From contig JAQBYI010000018.1 in assembly GCA_027622655.1 (NCBI GenBank), positions 1 through 59,085 of the forward strand: 59,085 nucleotides of DNA, read 5' to 3'. The stretch's first letter is position 1; every line of letters starts with the position of its first letter. The notes beneath the pieces are model-generated. The model worked only from the letters and a program-made list of their open reading frames with translations, made no database searches and had not been told where the DNA came from. The position numbers and the translations under genes were made by a program. This document shows, one piece after another, positions 7,169-13,731 of the stretch. The stretch comes from Gemmatimonadota bacterium (GTDB taxonomy: Bacteria; Gemmatimonadota; Gemmatimonadetes; Gemmatimonadales; Gemmatimonadaceae).

Positions 7169-8869
7169 CTACTGATCGAGCAACGGATACCAGCGTGTTG
7201 GCGCGCGGCGCTCGAGTTGCAGTTCGGCCATCGCGGCAATGCGGAACAGCAACCGCTCGCTCCAGGGACGCCCGATCACTTGCATGCCGACTGGCAGACC
7301 GTTCCGGTCGTACCCTGCAGGAAAACTGATGGCTGGGTGTCCGGTAAGATTCGCAGGAAACGCGAATCGCATTACTTCGGTAGTCATCGAAAGGTCGGAG
7401 CCACCGTGTGGGAGTGCAGCCGGATTGATTTTAGGTGCTACCTGGCCGGTAGCTGGCGTCACGATCGCGTGCACGTCCTGGAACGCGCGGCGCCAATGCG
7501 CGATTGCCCGCGTGCGCATTCGCGTGGCGGTCACAAGTTCTGCCGCGCTAAAGGAGCGCGCGATGGCGATGTTGGCGCGCGTGTCCAGTGAGAACTCGCG
7601 CCGTCGCGCAGGATGGTACGGAGCCATCGCCGCAGCCATTTCGCCGGTGATGATGGCGACATGGGCGATCCGTTCCAGATCGAGTTCTGGAATCTCGACT
7701 TCCACGATTGTCGCGCCGAGCCGTTCGAAGTTGCGGACCATCGCATCGCATCGCGCCACTAAATCGGCGGACGCATGCTGAAACCAAGCGCGATACACGC
7801 CGATGCGGATTCCGCGCAGCGAGCCCGGCGGTGCGACGTCGATTGAAACCGAAGGGTGTGACCGCGAGTTCGGGTCGAGCGCATCGTCGCCCGCCATGAC
7901 AGCGTATGCAGTCGCGCAGTCACGCACCGTCGCGGCGATGGGGCCTATGTGGGCGACGCTCCAGACCAGCGGGGCCGCGCCATGCTCGCTGATGCGACCG
8001 AACGTCGGCTTGATGCCCACCACGCCGCAGAACGCGGCCGGAATGCGAATAGAGCCACCGCCATCGGCCCCAATGGCAACGGGCACCAGACCACTCGCGA
8101 CCGCAGCGGCAGACCCACTGGAGGAGCCTCCCGTGTGGTACGCGTCATCGTAGGGATTCCGCGGCGTCCCGTGGTGTGGATTCAGCCCCGTCACGTTGAT
8201 GCCGATCTCGTGCATGTTCGCCTTGCCGACGATCAGCGCGCCGACAGCGCGCATTCGCGCGACAACTGTGGCGTCCGAATCGGCGGGCGGTCCTCCGAGG
8301 ATCTTCGTGCCGACAGTCATCGGGTACCCGGTCGCGTTCATTTCGTCCTTCACGGCGACCGGGACACCATCCCACGGTCCGAGCGAAGCGCCGGACTTCC
8401 AGCGTGCGGCGCTCGCTCTCGCCTGGTTCATCAGGTTGTCATCGCGCACGGCAATGAATGCACGCAGCGGCCGTGGGCCGGCATCGCTGGCACGCCACTG
8501 TTCGAGAAATCTTGCGGCAACGTCTTCGGGCGAGACCCGTCCCTTGCGATACGCCTTCGTGAAGTCATCCGCCGAGGGAAACTGGAAACCCGGCGCGACC
8601 GGGGGCGGAGCCGGTGCATCACTGTACGGACTGTCGTTCGCGTCGGACGGAGCAAGCGCCGGAATGCCGGGATCGTCGGACGGATGCAGGGGCAGGAATG
8701 TCGGCGGTTCGACGAGGGCGAGCTCGCGGAGGCGAGTGATGCCGGCGTCGCGCTTCAGCTTCTCAATCAGCAACGGGCCAATGAACGGCGCCTCGATCGC
8801 GGCGACCAGCGCGCGCAGGCCGCGGCTACCGAGACGCGGGAGGTCAAGCGACTTGAGGTCGTACGTCAC
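7169..8869 (-). CDS. Amidase-signature family hydrolase
   Basis: A 566-residue enzyme of the GatA/amidase-signature family, which hydrolyses carboxamides. The Ser-cisSer-Lys triad is visible: Lys174 in VAVKDEMN, Ser249 in HTGGSSSGSAA, and nucleophile Ser273 in GADGGGSIRIPAAF. There is no signal peptide. The start is a GTG at 8869 overlapping the stop of the upstream gene (GTGA), so translation is coupled. The same frame runs open up to 9112, but that extra part is Arg-rich and is a shadow of the neighbour. An N-terminal ~90 residues before the core includes a Pro/Ser/Asp-rich linker. The substrate is unknown; its partner is a cyanophycinase-like protein, so peptide or amino-acid amides are possible. 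Confidence 0.88.
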   Translation of the reverse strand: MTYDLKSLDLPRLGSRGLRALVAAIEAPFIGPLLIEKLKRDAGITRLRELALVEPPTFLPLHPSDDPGIPALAPSDANDSPYSDAPAPPPVAPGFQFPSADDFTKAYRKGRVSPEDVAARFLEQWRASDAGPRPLRAFIAVRDDNLMNQARASAARWKSGASLGPWDGVPVAVKDEMNATGYPMTVGTKILGGPPADSDATVVARMRAVGALIVGKANMHEIGINVTGLNPHHGTPRNPYDDAYHTGGSSSGSAAAVASGLVPVAIGADGGGSIRIPAAFCGVVGIKPTFGRISEHGAAPLVWSVAHIGPIAATVRDCATAYAVMAGDDALDPNSRSHPSVSIDVAPPGSLRGIRIGVYRAWFQHASADLVARCDAMVRNFERLGATIVEVEIPELDLERIAHVAIITGEMAAAMAPYHPARRREFSLDTRANIAIARSFSAAELVTATRMRTRAIAHWRRAFQDVHAIVTPATGQVAPKINPAALPHGGSDLSMTTEVMRFAFPANLTGHPAISFPAGYDRNGLPVGMQVIGRPWSERLLFRIAAMAELQLERRAPTRWYPLLDQ

Positions 8870-11505
8870 TTCAGTGCCTTCATGAGCACACCAACATGGC
8901 CGCGCGGGCCGGCGATGAATCCGGCTTCCGCGCCCGCGAACCCGATGCCATACGCCGTCAGTGTATCCGCGTAAAGCCATGAAGCGCCGAAATCGCGGGT
9001 GTACGCGACTCCGATCTGGCCGACGGCGACGAAAATCGGAGGACTTGTGCCCGGAACGTGCACAACGCCGGAAGTCGTGCCATCGGGCCGGCGCACGCCG
9101 GCGGGCGCCCACGTCACGCCGCCATCGAAGGTTCTCAGCGCGAACGACGTGATTCCACGCTCATTTCGGTAGTCGCCACCGACGGCTATTCCGTTCATCG
9201 CATCGGCGAACGCGATGCCAAAAAGGCCCGAGCTAGCACCTCCCGGCATGCCCGTAGAGGCAACAGTCCACGACCGCCCCCGATCGGTCGTGCGATAGAC
9301 GCGCGCCTGGGCTCCTCCGCCCGTGGCGATCCAACCGTTCGACGTACCCTGAACGGTGAGTTGCGTGTTGCTCGCAGCGAACGCGGCTTCATTCGGCAGA
9401 TTCGCCGGAACCCGATCGGCAGGCACTCTTGCCCAGCTCGCACCGCCGTCATCTGTGGTGAGAATCACAAACCGTCCATCGACCGGATCTGAAAACGTGA
9501 AACCGTGACTGGCATCCCAAAATGCCACACCGTCGAGAAAAACGCCCGCGGTGGTGTCGGTCCACGCGAGCGTCCACGTGCGGGCCCCGTCGGTGGTACG
9601 AAAGATCTTTGCCTGACCGCGTTCGGCCGGGCCGGCGCTCACGACGACGGCCGTATTGGCGTCGAACGCCTTGATGCCACGAAAATCGAGTGTTGCGGCG
9701 CCGGGAACGGAATCTACGGTCCAGGTGGTTCCGCCGTCCGTGGTCCGAAACACCTTGCCGCCCGTGCATCCCGCCCAAGCCACCTGTGCGCTCGCCGCGC
9801 TCATGCTGCGGCAGCTGGAGTTGCTCGCGACGGACGCATTGCGAAACAGTGTCCGGTCGCGGCCTTCAAAAAAAAGTCGATCCGCGATGCGTTCGGCCGC
9901 ACCCTTGGCGTCGAAAGTCGGCTGATCGGTGACGATGATGATGGATGCCCGGTGGCCAGGAATTCGTACGAAGGCGCCTTGAGTTCCGTTGGGGTTGATG
10001 AATGCCGACTGCCGCGGGAGTCCGCGCCATGCATCGAGGCGCCATCCGAGTCCGTTGCCAGAACCCCTGCCGCCGCCAGCGGCGAACATTGAATCCGACC
10101 CGGCAACGGTGAGCGCCGTGTAGGCCTGCAGGCCGAGTTCCAGACGGTACAAATCGTCGACGTTCGACACTACAGTGCCGTCTTCCTCGGCACGCGTGCG
10201 CTGTGCACCGCCGGATGAAAGCAGGCGTCGCTGTACGAAAACGGCGACCGTACCACCCGAGCGCTCAGCGACGAGGCGCGCGATTTTCCGGGCGCCTTCG
10301 GGCGCTGTTTGTTCGCGAGTCAGGTATTCACGGATAGTGGTACTTTCGCCAGGAGAGAGCGCATCGTCGAGCGTGAGCCTGTTTTCGCGTGCCAGGGTCA
10401 GCGCGGCCGACGCGAGGAAAACATCGCCGATCTCCCCGATCGGGAAATTCGGCACTCCGGTGACCGGCATGTAGCGTGCCTGTGGCGGGACACCATACCC
10501 AGTGGCCACAAACACGCGGCCTTCCTGTGCGACGTGGACCGTCGCATTACCGCCGTTTGTGTTGAACGCCGCGAACACCGAGTCGACGAACGCGCGCGTC
10601 AGAGGTGAATCATCGATGGCGCGCGACACTACACGACGCTTTCCAAGATCGTACTTGTCTCCGGGAAAGAGCGTGAGAAACGGCTTGCCCGGATCGGTCG
10701 CATCGGCGCCGTTGTAGACGAACGCCTTGTTGCGGCCAATTATTTCGGCGTTGTCGCCCTTGATCAACCAGGCGGTGCCCTCGTCCTCGGAGATGAACAG
10801 CATCTCCGGGTGACGCGGCATCAGGGAGTCGGCGACGTCCGGGAGACGCATGCGGGCGACGACGTGCTGATCAACGCCTGTGTTCCTGAGGTAGCCAAAG
10901 CCTCGGGTGTATCCCGGGTACTCGATAATGCCGTTGTTGTTTGACGGCGCCCCCCGAACCATAAAGCTGCCCAGAATGGATGCGCCTGCCGACGAACCGC
11001 CAACCACGCCGCCGCGACGCAGGACGTTCATGATTTCAGTTTCGGTGCGCGTGCCGCCGTACGAATCGACGAGACGAAACTGCCGGCCGCCTTCGTACCA
11101 GACCCCGCCGGCCCGACGCAGCACGTTCACGAAACTGTCGGAGTTGGCGAGGTCTTTGCGATCCGGATTGGAGTGGAGCACGACGACGTTTGTGGCGCCG
11201 GCTCCTTTCAACCCGTTCGCGCCTCGCCAGTTTGCCGGGTACGCCGTGTCGCCTCCGGCAGTTGGGATGTCGACGATGAGCGCGTTCGGACCACCAGCTG
11301 CGTCAATGAATGCCTTGTACAACTCGGGACCTTGCTGGCCGCCGCCGACGACGAGCAGCGTACCGGTCGGAGGTCCGACGAGCGGGGTTCCACCAGCAAG
11401 AGCCGAACCCGACATACCTCCCGCGCAGGCAGACGCGGCTATGATCGAGAGCAGCGCAACACTTCGGTTGCGCGTGAATCGGCATCGGCTTGGTCGGATT
11501 GTCAC
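8866..11505 (-). CDS. Three-domain lipoprotein: S51 cyanophycinase-like, inactive beta-lactamase-like, Ycf48-like propeller
   Basis: An 879-residue exported protein. Residues 1-27 form a lipoprotein-type signal (IIAASAC, Cys27). Residues ~45-290 match peptidase S51/cyanophycinase, with GTLLVVGGGQ and the nucleophile motif GGSSAGAS (Ser172). Residues ~295-550 resemble a serine beta-lactamase/PBP-like domain (LTLARENRLTLDDAL, GLGWRLDAW), but SxxK is replaced by EIGD (358-361), the YxN motif is missing, and the late HxG is replaced. Residues ~551-879 hold about six BNR/Asp-box repeats (RTTDGGTTWT, RTTDGARTWT, TTDDGGASW, RTTDRGRSWT, RTFDGGVTW) as in Ycf48/sortilin-like propellers. The GTG at 11505 has AAGG eight bases upstream; another GTG lies at 11535. 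The downstream amidase overlaps by four bases. The substrate is unknown. Confidence 0.78.
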   Translation of the reverse strand: MTIRPSRCRFTRNRSVALLSIIAASACAGGMSGSALAGGTPLVGPPTGTLLVVGGGQQGPELYKAFIDAAGGPNALIVDIPTAGGDTAYPANWRGANGLKGAGATNVVVLHSNPDRKDLANSDSFVNVLRRAGGVWYEGGRQFRLVDSYGGTRTETEIMNVLRRGGVVGGSSAGASILGSFMVRGAPSNNNGIIEYPGYTRGFGYLRNTGVDQHVVARMRLPDVADSLMPRHPEMLFISEDEGTAWLIKGDNAEIIGRNKAFVYNGADATDPGKPFLTLFPGDKYDLGKRRVVSRAIDDSPLTRAFVDSVFAAFNTNGGNATVHVAQEGRVFVATGYGVPPQARYMPVTGVPNFPIGEIGDVFLASAALTLARENRLTLDDALSPGESTTIREYLTREQTAPEGARKIARLVAERSGGTVAVFVQRRLLSSGGAQRTRAEEDGTVVSNVDDLYRLELGLQAYTALTVAGSDSMFAAGGGRGSGNGLGWRLDAWRGLPRQSAFINPNGTQGAFVRIPGHRASIIIVTDQPTFDAKGAAERIADRLFFEGRDRTLFRNASVASNSSCRSMSAASAQVAWAGCTGGKVFRTTDGGTTWTVDSVPGAATLDFRGIKAFDANTAVVVSAGPAERGQAKIFRTTDGARTWTLAWTDTTAGVFLDGVAFWDASHGFTFSDPVDGRFVILTTDDGGASWARVPADRVPANLPNEAAFAASNTQLTVQGTSNGWIATGGGAQARVYRTTDRGRSWTVASTGMPGGASSGLFGIAFADAMNGIAVGGDYRNERGITSFALRTFDGGVTWAPAGVRRPDGTTSGVVHVPGTSPPIFVAVGQIGVAYTRDFGASWLYADTLTAYGIGFAGAEAGFIAGPRGHVGVLMKALK

Positions 11506-11581
11506 GTCGGGGCCTTGGGTGAGGTAAATCGGCACAGGACAAACTTCGCGTTCGCGGCTGAATGGCGCGAGAGGCCTTCGC

Positions 11582-11593: not shown

Positions 11594-12172
11594 ATGCCCG
11601 CCTCGCGATTGGCCTGCGCAGCGTTGCTGGCGGCCGGTGTTGCGTGCGCTGGAAGCGAAGCGCCGTTGCACGGGGTCGTCATTGATCCACCGCAGGAAGT
11701 ACCGGCGATCCGAATCGCCGACGCTGCTGGCATCACCTTCGATCTGGACGGCGAACGCGGCCGTCGGGCGGCGGCGGTGTTCTTCGGGTACACCCATTGC
11801 CCCGACATCTGCCCAGCGACGCTGGCCGATTGGGCCCGAGCGAAACGATTGCTCGGCGCCGCTGCCGACGGAATTCGCTGGGTATTCGTGAGCATCGACC
11901 CGGCACGCGATACACCGGAGATCGCCCGCAACTACGCAGAGCAATTCGACTCAAGTTTCGTCGGGCTCGCTCCCACGGTAGCGCAGCTCGACTCGTTGAA
12001 ACAGAACCGGGGCTTTGCGGTCACCAACGAAACGAGCCCGGGCATGCCCGGCTATTCTGTCGCGCATCCTGCCGGAACGTTCGTCGTGGATCGCGCCGGA
12101 CGGATTCGCCTCATCTATCCACCCAATACGCACCCAGCTGACATGGCTGCGGACCTCCGGCGGATCGAATGA
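11594..12172 (+). CDS. Sco1/SenC-family copper chaperone, lipoprotein
   Basis: A 192-residue thioredoxin-fold protein that in this family delivers copper to the CuA centre of cytochrome oxidase or acts as a thiol reductase in the periplasm. The CxxxC copper site is Cys69 and Cys73 in YTHCPDICP, and the third ligand His158 is in YSVAHPAGTF. A lipobox (AGVAC, Cys18) anchors it to the membrane. The next gene overlaps the stop by four bases (ATGA), although that gene encodes a glycosidase-like protein with no obvious link. No oxidase genes lie in the window. Confidence 0.88.
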   Translation: MPASRLACAALLAAGVACAGSEAPLHGVVIDPPQEVPAIRIADAAGITFDLDGERGRRAAAVFFGYTHCPDICPATLADWARAKRLLGAAADGIRWVFVSIDPARDTPEIARNYAEQFDSSFVGLAPTVAQLDSLKQNRGFAVTNETSPGMPGYSVAHPAGTFVVDRAGRIRLIYPPNTHPADMAADLRRIE

Positions 12173-13731
12173 CCAGGCGAGTCAGCGCAGGGTGTGTGGT
12201 TGGTTTGTTTGTCCTCGCCGCCACAGACGGGGGAGCGCAGCAGTCACCTTGGGACGCGCCTGTTGTACGCTCGGCACCGTGCCTGGCCATGGAGACTGAA
12301 TGCTCTCCTCCCCACGTACGTCGTGAGTTTCGTGGAGTGTGGGTGGCAACAGTCGGGAACATGGACTGGCCGTCGCGGCCTGGACTTCCGACCGACAGTG
12401 CGAAACGGGAGTTGATTCGAATCCTCGATCATGCCGCGCAGACCGGGCTCAACGCGATTGTGTTCCAGGTCCGACCAGCCGGCGACGCACTGTACGTGTC
12501 GAGAATCGAACCGTGGTCGGAGTATCTCACGGGACGGCAGGGTCGTGCCCCCGATACGGCCTGGGATCCGCTCGCATTCGTTGTCCGCGAAGCGCATGCG
12601 CGTGGACTCGAACTGCACGCATGGTTCAACCCATACCGGGCGAAGGATCCAACCGCAAAGGGACCGATCGCCACGAATCATCTGTCGCGGCAGTATCCGG
12701 CGTATGCCAAGCCGTATGGGCGGTATCTCTGGTTCGACCCGGGCGAACCCGACGTCCGCAAACGTACAGTGCGTGTTGTTCTGGACGTGCTCAACCGGTA
12801 CGACGTCGACGGAATCCACCTTGACGACTACTTCTATCCGTACCCAGAGCAGCGACGCCGGGTCGACATTCCGTTCCCGGACGCGACAACGTTCGCCCTC
12901 TATCGGCGCACTGGCGGGGCGTTGGACCGCGACGACTGGCGCCGTGATAACGTGAATCGGCTGGTAGACACGCTGCGCGCGGAGATCACGAAAGCGAAGC
13001 CGTGGGTGAAGTTCGGCATCAGTCCGTTCGGCATATGGAAGCCCGGTGAACCGAAGACGGTGACCGGGCTCGATGCGTTCACCAAGATATTTGCCGACGC
13101 CCGAACATGGTTGGCCCGTGGTTGGGTGGACTACCTAGTGCCGCAGTTGTACTGGGGCGTGGAACAGGATGGACAGCGATTTGGCGAGTTGCTCCGGTGG
13201 TGGCAGGCGCAGAACGATTCGTCACGCCACATCTGGCCGGGACTCGCCGACTACAAGATCGGTGATGCCAGAGCGAAATGGCGGAGCGGAGAAATCCTCC
13301 GTCAGATCGACACGACCCGCACTGTGCCCGGTGTGGCCGGCGCCGTACACTTTCAGATGACGGCACTGCTTGAGGATCGCGATTCGTTGGCGACCGTGCT
13401 GGCACGCGGACCGTATGCAAGCCGAGCGCTTGTTCCGGCGATGCCATGGAAGGGAGCCGCAGTTCCGCGGACACCGGCGATTGCGATCGTGGAGAGCAGG
13501 CAAGGAGACATGCTGACAATCGCCCGGCGCCCTACCGACGATGTGCGTTGGTGGGTCATTCAGGCGCGCATTGGCACCGACTGGTACGTCCATGTCGTGG
13601 ACGGGGCGTTGTCGGAGATGCCAGTCTCCAGGCTCGAATCGCCGCGCGGCGACCGCCCGGACATCGTCACACTTCTGCCGGTGGGCCGCACCGGTGTGGG
13701 CGGGGTCCCGGTGGCAATTCGCGTGCGGTGA
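12169..13731 (+). CDS. GHL10/DUF187-type glycosidase-like protein, exported
   Basis: A 520-residue protein with a signal peptide (residues 1-23, ending GGAQQ) and a glycoside-hydrolase-like (beta/alpha)8 domain of the GHL10/DUF187 (YngK-like) family. Characteristic segments are REFRGVWVATVGNMDWPS, NAIVFQVRPAGDALY, LELHAWFNPYR, GIHLDDYFYPYP and KFGISPFGIWKPG. Members act on cell-wall or extracellular glycans in some bacteria; the substrate here is unknown. The C-terminal ~100 residues look like a small beta domain. The start codon overlaps the Sco1 stop, so the two are co-translated. Confidence 0.82.
   Translation: MTRRVSAGCVVGLFVLAATDGGAQQSPWDAPVVRSAPCLAMETECSPPHVRREFRGVWVATVGNMDWPSRPGLPTDSAKRELIRILDHAAQTGLNAIVFQVRPAGDALYVSRIEPWSEYLTGRQGRAPDTAWDPLAFVVREAHARGLELHAWFNPYRAKDPTAKGPIATNHLSRQYPAYAKPYGRYLWFDPGEPDVRKRTVRVVLDVLNRYDVDGIHLDDYFYPYPEQRRRVDIPFPDATTFALYRRTGGALDRDDWRRDNVNRLVDTLRAEITKAKPWVKFGISPFGIWKPGEPKTVTGLDAFTKIFADARTWLARGWVDYLVPQLYWGVEQDGQRFGELLRWWQAQNDSSRHIWPGLADYKIGDARAKWRSGEILRQIDTTRTVPGVAGAVHFQMTALLEDRDSLATVLARGPYASRALVPAMPWKGAAVPRTPAIAIVESRQGDMLTIARRPTDDVRWWVIQARIGTDWYVHVVDGALSEMPVSRLESPRGDRPDIVTLLPVGRTGVGGVPVAIRVR

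What the first reader, a model, noticed from the sequence alone, without database searches (positions are those of the whole stretch)
8866..11505. Unusual fusion: S51 cyanophycinase-like, catalytically dead beta-lactamase-like, and Ycf48-like propeller domains
One exported lipoprotein carries three regions. The S51-like region keeps its nucleophile motif (GGSSAGAS). The middle resembles a serine beta-lactamase/PBP but has lost SxxK (EIGD), the YxN motif and the late HxG motif, so it is probably a binding module. The C-terminus is a BNR/Ycf48-type propeller with about six Asp-box repeats. I know of no described protein with this order. A coupled amidase suggests a pathway that breaks amide or beta-aspartyl-type bonds outside and then inside the cell.
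Basis: partly seen in the sequence, partly recalled or inferred. Interest (0 to 1): 0.62.

Follow-up and report, generated by a model that had tools for sequence, protein, structure and literature searches.

The report
Swappable-head lipoprotein with dead lactamase domain
A soil-type bacterium makes an exported protein built from an intact peptidase, a worn-out beta-lactamase-like domain and a propeller, and relatives carry different front ends on the same propeller at the same genome position, nearly always beside the same amidase gene, which suggests an exchangeable-head degradation system not described in the papers searched.

Summary
Window 8866-11505 (-) encodes an 879-aa lipoprotein (GTG start, lipobox Cys27). 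AlphaFold2 (pLDDT 88) shows an S51 domain with its full Ser172/His214/Glu242 triad, a beta-lactamase/PBP-fold domain without catalytic residues (VIA-align Z 20.8), and a seven-bladed Ycf48/Asp-box propeller.

The order is not unique. Three congeners have the same protein. Other Gemmatimonadaceae have S51 + INTACT beta-lactamase-like domain (SVTK, YSN, HTG) + propeller. The dead, shortened middle domain defines a large family of stand-alone two-domain proteins. Trees show that the window's S51 belongs to the dead-domain clade (AU p 2e-9 against the intact fusion), while its propeller belongs to the genus's propeller clade. All versions sit at one syntenic locus, nearly always upstream of the same amidase.

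So this is a domain swap in front of a propeller-amidase unit. The propeller gene's stop overlaps the amidase start (RTGA) in 14 of 16 loci, whatever head is attached. The amidase is a full-length homologue of plant FAAH. The S51 is probably not a standard cyanophycinase: substrate residue Arg183 is Asp throughout the family, and the genome has a separate cyanophycin cluster. Substrate and propeller ligand remain unknown.

The parts
8866..11505 (-). Three-domain exported lipoprotein, 879 aa, GTG start (11505), TGA stop (8866-8868)
   Evidence: orthologues in G217, G219, G224 at 72-74%
11425..11505 (-). Signal peptide with lipobox (..IIAASAC27AGG), residues 1-27
   Evidence: sequence; lipobox-like motif in nearly all relatives at this locus
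10621..11367 (-). S51 peptidase domain, residues 47-295; nucleophile S172, H214, E242; Q142, D212, Q213, R218, R220 kept; D223 where cyanophycinase has Arg183
   Evidence: residue roles from PMC3235067
9850..10620 (-). Beta-lactamase/D-aminopeptidase-fold pseudoenzyme domain, residues 296-552; SxxK site = E358-I-G-D361, YxN segment deleted, HTG site = A501-F-I
8869..9849 (-). Seven-bladed Ycf48/Asp-box beta-propeller, residues 553-879
8866..8872 (-). Stop/start overlap GTGA: lipoprotein stop TGA overlaps amidase start GTG; an RTGA overlap is conserved in 13 of 15 relatives that have propeller and amidase
7169..8872 (-). Amidase, 567 aa, start overlapping the lipoprotein stop, no signal peptide recognised by eye; full-length homologue of Arabidopsis fatty acid amide hydrolase
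11594..13731 (+). Divergent SCO1/SenC (11594-12172) and GHL10 glycoside hydrolase-like (12169-13731) genes that mark the syntenic locus

Best explanation
This is a domain-swapped member of a modular exported system of Gemmatimonadaceae. The constant unit is a Ycf48-type propeller lipoprotein whose stop codon overlaps the start of a probably cytoplasmic FAAH-like amidase. The module in front of the propeller varies at the same locus: nothing, an intact beta-lactamase/D-aminopeptidase-like hydrolase, S51 + intact hydrolase, or, in the window's clade, S51 + a dead and shortened hydrolase domain. In the window protein the S51 domain is the only domain with intact catalytic residues. It most likely cleaves Asp-containing peptides or amides in the periplasm or at the cell surface, with a specificity shifted from cyanophycin. 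The dead domain is a maintained scaffold or binding module between S51 and propeller. The propeller holds substrate or partner, and the product is taken up and further hydrolysed by the amidase. Shown here: anatomy, motif state, synteny, stop/start overlap, domain replacement. Inferred: S51 activity and substrate, the role of dead domain and propeller, product hand-over to the amidase.
For: Domains and folds. Intact S51 triad and 5 of 6 substrate residues. Intact versus dead middle domain, no mixtures among the complete domains read. Same locus with different heads. RTGA overlap independent of head. S51 of the window clade does not group with the intact-fusion S51 of the genus (AU p 1.7e-9; with G216 added p 0.009), while its propeller lies in the genus propeller clade (99/98). 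Amidase restricted to genera g1, g10 and g16 of the family. Rough dN/dS (synonymous sites near saturation): S51 0.08-0.13, middle 0.15-0.36, propeller 0.08-0.16, so the dead domain is under weaker but real constraint.
Against: Nothing shows activity, expression or substrate. The amidase also occurs without the propeller (genus g16, G220) and the propeller without the amidase (G063, other genera), so the link is not obligatory. One genome (G216) keeps S51 + dead domain and amidase without the propeller, so the propeller is not always the constant part. The direction of the swap rests on trees of about 250 columns rooted by midpoint.
Confidence: 0.55

Rival explanations
1. It is an extracellular cyanophycinase (CphE-like): the S51 domain releases beta-Asp-Arg dipeptides from cyanophycin of other cells, and the other domains only anchor it.
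For: Closest solved structures are cyanophycinases (VIA-align Z 27.7-28.4); triad and Gln101/Asp172/Gln173/Arg178/Arg180 equivalents kept; the host itself has cyanophycin metabolism.
Against: Arg183, reported critical (PMC3235067), is Asp throughout this exported family (45 of 46 by pattern, the last by eye). TIGR02069 score is 84-87 bits against a cut-off of 126.6, whereas the genome's own intracellular cyanophycinase scores 244.8 and keeps the Arg. The coupled amidase is FAAH-like.
Confidence: 0.2
2. The middle domain is not dead but has a different catalytic arrangement in the old groove.
For: It is under purifying selection (dN/dS 0.15-0.36) and keeps the fold.
Against: The whole YxN segment is deleted and in many relatives most of the helical lobe is gone. 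Only G138, L157 and R159 of the domain are invariant in alignment A2, which points to structure rather than catalysis. It evolves faster than both neighbours.
Confidence: 0.07
3. The fusion is a decaying gene or an assembly artefact, and the protein is not made as one chain.
For: The middle domain has lost catalysis and length; G216 lacks the propeller; expression is unknown.
Against: Four species carry the same open frame at the same locus with 72-74% identity and low dN/dS in all domains; the model is confident across all three domains.
Confidence: 0.03

Closest known systems
Cyanophycinase CphB/CphE (MEROPS S51; PDB 3en0, 7uqw, 7uqv; TIGR02069)
   Same: Fold, Ser-His-Glu triad, GxSxG, Gln101/Asp172/Gln173/Arg178/Arg180 equivalents; exported like CphE
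   Different: Arg183 replaced by Asp; below the TIGR02069 cut-off; fused to two further domains; the host has a separate IadA-cyanophycinase-CphA1 cluster
D-aminopeptidase / AmpH / class C beta-lactamase-like serine hydrolases (PF00144; PDB 1ei5, 2qmi, ClbP 7mdf, Lip3 9sn1)
   Same: Fold of the middle domain (Z 20.8 to 2qmi); intact relatives at the same locus keep SxxK, YxN and HTG (PRK13128 E 1e-33)
   Different: The window domain lacks all three motifs and about 80 residues of the helical part
Ycf48/HCF136 photosystem II assembly factor (PDB 2xbg, 5ojr; PF14870)
   Same: Seven-bladed propeller with Asp-box repeats; lipoprotein in bacteria
   Different: Far below the Ycf48 equivalog cut-off (31 vs 326 bits); fused to hydrolase domains; no photosystem gene among the neighbours scanned
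Plant fatty acid amide hydrolase (PDB 6dhv), for the coupled amidase
   Same: Aligned over residues 2-565 including the N-terminal extension, E 2e-112; amidase signature GGSSSGSAA
   Different: Bacterial gene whose start overlaps the stop of a secreted propeller protein; substrate untested

Membership tests
Cyanophycinase (TIGR02069) | Ser/His/Glu triad with GxSxG | tested here: met
   S172, H214, E242 align with CphB S132, H174, E201
Cyanophycinase (TIGR02069) | Substrate residues Gln101, Asp172, Gln173, Arg178, Arg180 | tested here: met
   Q142, D212, Q213, R218, R220; residue list from PMC3235067
Cyanophycinase (TIGR02069) | Arg183 | tested here: not met
   D223 in the window; Asp in 45 of 46 family members by pattern, the last one Asp by eye
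Cyanophycinase (TIGR02069) | Score above curated equivalog cut-off (126.6 bits) | tested here: not met
   83.6 bits whole protein, 87.4 bits domain; own intracellular cyanophycinase 244.8
Cyanophycinase (TIGR02069) | Release of beta-Asp-Arg from cyanophycin | not testable with these tools
   needs an enzyme assay
Peptidase family S51 (PF03575) | Pfam gathering score and fold | tested here: met
   39.1 vs 23.9 bits; Z 27.7-28.4 to cyanophycinases
Serine beta-lactamase / PBP-like (PF00144) | Fold | tested here: met
   Pfam 34.8 vs 27 bits for the domain alone; VIA-align Z 20.8, 234 residues, 3.1 A to 2qmi
Serine beta-lactamase / PBP-like (PF00144) | Catalytic SxxK, Y/SxN and K/HTG motifs | tested here: not met
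   EIGD, deleted, AFI
Ycf48 (PF14870 / NF010237) | Asp-box seven-bladed propeller (PF14870 cut-off) | tested here: met
   28.6 vs 27 bits; Foldseek to 5ojr/2xbg, best E 1.5e-14
Ycf48 (PF14870 / NF010237) | Ycf48 equivalog score (326 bits) | tested here: not met
   31.2 bits
Plant-type FAAH (coupled amidase) | Full-length similarity including N-terminal region | tested here: met
   query 2-565 to 6dhv 18-604, E 2.3e-112
Plant-type FAAH (coupled amidase) | Hydrolysis of N-acyl amides | not testable with these tools
   needs an assay

The most novel reading that the evidence does not exclude
One chromosomal locus of Gemmatimonadaceae works as a head-swapping station: hydrolase heads (D-aminopeptidase-like, S51 with it, or S51 with a dead D-aminopeptidase-like domain used as a binding arm) are exchanged in front of a constant propeller that docks them or their substrate, and the coupled FAAH-like amidase finishes the breakdown of an N-acylated or unusual (beta-aspartyl or D-) peptide inside the cell.
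Probability: 0.25. Interest if true: 0.62.

Novelty: new variant of a known kind. Interest (0 to 1): 0.47.

Why it matters
It supplies a natural series, from intact enzyme through partly eroded to almost stripped beta-lactamase-fold domains, inside otherwise conserved proteins, so the step from enzyme to pseudoenzyme can be studied with living intermediates. It also links a secreted Ycf48-type propeller to a plant-FAAH-like amidase by a conserved stop/start overlap, which gives a testable role for two poorly understood bacterial families. The S51 clade with Arg183 changed to Asp is a clear candidate for a new S51 specificity.

Tried and rejected
Assembly artefact or pseudogene: rejected by four species with the same open frame at the same locus. 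Window-specific decay of the middle domain: rejected; the dead state is shared by about 35 proteins, including an own-genome paralogue on contig C27. Simple descent from the intact three-domain fusion: rejected by the S51 tree and AU test. Stand-alone propellers outside genera g1 and g10 were checked for the amidase: none of the 18 loci had it nearby. A scan of genome contigs with the full protein gave no relatives, so relatives came from the genome search. Literature searches for the fusion, Gemmatimonadota cyanophycinases, Ycf48-like proteins outside photosynthesis and beta-lactamase-fold pseudoenzymes found nothing that describes this; subscription papers are not held. The context of stand-alone S51 + dead-domain genes was inspected by eye in four genomes; no shared neighbour was seen.

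Full report
CHECK OF THE OBSERVATION. The reading frame 8866-11505 on the minus strand is open, with a GTG start at 11505 and a possible alternative at 11535. The N-terminus (..SIIAASAC27AGG) fits a lipobox, and lipobox-like motifs occur in nearly all relatives at this locus. Pfam recognises S51, Beta-lactamase and PSII_BNR/Sortilin-type repeats in that order. A 67-sequence alignment gave a full-length AlphaFold2 model with mean pLDDT 88.4. Foldseek and VIA-align put residues 48-295 on cyanophycinases (Z 27.7-28.4) and 550-879 on seven-bladed propellers, with Ycf48 among the top Foldseek hits. The middle domain was folded on its own (pLDDT 87.4) and matches PBP/D-aminopeptidase/class C beta-lactamase structures, best 2qmi at Z 20.8, 234 residues, 3.1 A. 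The alignment used for it contains intact homologues, which helps the fold prediction.

STATE OF THE ACTIVE SITES. The S51 domain keeps S172, H214 and E242, equivalent to CphB S132, H174 and E201, and the Gln101/Asp172/Gln173/Arg178/Arg180 equivalents. The residues reported critical in CphB are listed in PMC3235067, citing Law et al. 2009. Arg183 is replaced by Asp223, and by Asp in 45 of 46 sequences of this exported family, stand-alone S51 proteins included. In the 46th (G224) the DQH motif reads DMH, so the pattern missed it; its Asp is visible in the printed sequence. The host's own intracellular cyanophycinase keeps the Arg and scores 244.8 bits against TIGR02069, versus 83.6-87.4 for the window protein and a cut-off of 126.6. 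In the middle domain the SxxK site is E358-I-G-D361, the segment with YxN is deleted and the HTG site is A501-F-I.

RELATIVES. In the genus, three more species have the same three-domain protein (G217, G219, G224; 72-74% identity). G124 and G152 of the same genus, and G127, G075, G293 (two copies), G294 and G295 of genus g10, have the same order. In those whose motifs were read, the middle domain has SxxK, YxN and HTG intact. G118 and G223 have the intact hydrolase plus propeller without S51. G063, G215, G218 and G222 have the propeller alone, as a lipoprotein. More than thirty genomes have a stand-alone S51 + dead-domain protein, including a paralogue in the window's own genome (C27, L043). 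No complete middle domain read mixes the states. The dead domains form a graded series; some have lost most of the helical lobe. In the window's orthologue group the dead domain still shows dN/dS 0.15-0.36, against 0.08-0.16 for its neighbours (Nei-Gojobori, synonymous sites near saturation, so rough).

ONE LOCUS, DIFFERENT HEADS. The propeller gene, whatever its head, lies next to divergent SCO1/GHL10 genes or GHL10 alone and upstream of the same amidase in both genera, where the fetched stretch reaches; G063 lacks the amidase. Its stop codon overlaps the amidase start as RTGA in the window and in 13 of 15 relatives with both parts. G216 kept S51 + dead domain and the amidase but has no propeller, and there the overlap is gone. 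The amidase is found in 25 of 179 family genomes, only in genera g1, g10 and g16. In g16 and G220 it occurs without the propeller. It aligns end to end with Arabidopsis FAAH (6dhv, E 2e-112).

EVOLUTION. The S51 tree places the window clade inside the dead-domain clade (36 rows, 100/99), with the intact-fusion S51 of the same genus outside it. Forcing the window clade and those intact fusions together is rejected (AU p 1.7e-9; with G216 included p 0.009). The propeller tree places the window clade inside the genus's own propeller clade, near the intact fusions. The simplest reading is replacement of the head of a propeller gene by an S51 + dead-domain head within the genus. Recombination and fresh fusion cannot be told apart here.

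HOW IT PROBABLY WORKS. Shown: anatomy, motif state, synteny, stop/start overlap, domain replacement. Established knowledge: S51 enzymes act on Asp-containing peptides (PMC9239234, PMC10206079), and plant FAAH hydrolyses N-acyl amides (own knowledge). Inferred: the lipoprotein faces the periplasm or cell surface, S51 is its only working enzyme, its substrate is not ordinary cyanophycin, the dead domain is a scaffold or binding arm, the propeller binds substrate or partner, and the amidase handles a product inside the cell.

KNOWN OR NEW. All three folds and the amidase are known families. The combination, the intact/dead pair of fusions and the head swap at a fixed locus are not described in any paper found. 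I rate it a new variant of a known kind.

Noticed in passing
G000:C44 (L004 299-2325, L105): The window's genome has a cyanophycin cluster: beta-aspartyl peptidase IadA (388 bits, cut-off 331), cyanophycinase (244.8, cut-off 126.6), CphA1 (1116, cut-off 850) and a second CphA-like ORF (306.6 bits, below cut-off).
   Followed up: partly
window 7169-8872 (-): Bacterial amidase that is a full-length homologue of plant FAAH including the N-terminal extension; in genus g16 it sits next to an enoyl-CoA hydratase-like gene and in G220 downstream of an SDR dehydrogenase-like gene (names by eye), which would fit lipid-amide use.
   Followed up: partly
L067 (G224): The S51 domain of this orthologue has DMH instead of DQH, losing the residue said to position the catalytic His, while the triad stays.
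   Followed up: no
L075 841-2469 and L076 5838-9999: Stand-alone S51 + dead-domain genes lie near an intact beta-lactamase-like hydrolase gene (G118) and next to an AS-family amidase and an M14-like carboxypeptidase gene (G124); names by eye.
   Followed up: no
L040, L073 (G118, G223): The locus gene lacks S51 but has the intact hydrolase domain and propeller, with an S51 + dead-domain paralogue elsewhere: the reverse choice to the window.
   Followed up: partly
L068 (G216): Close relative of the window gene without a propeller: the frame stops at the middle-domain/propeller border and no propeller of this type was found in that genome.
   Followed up: partly
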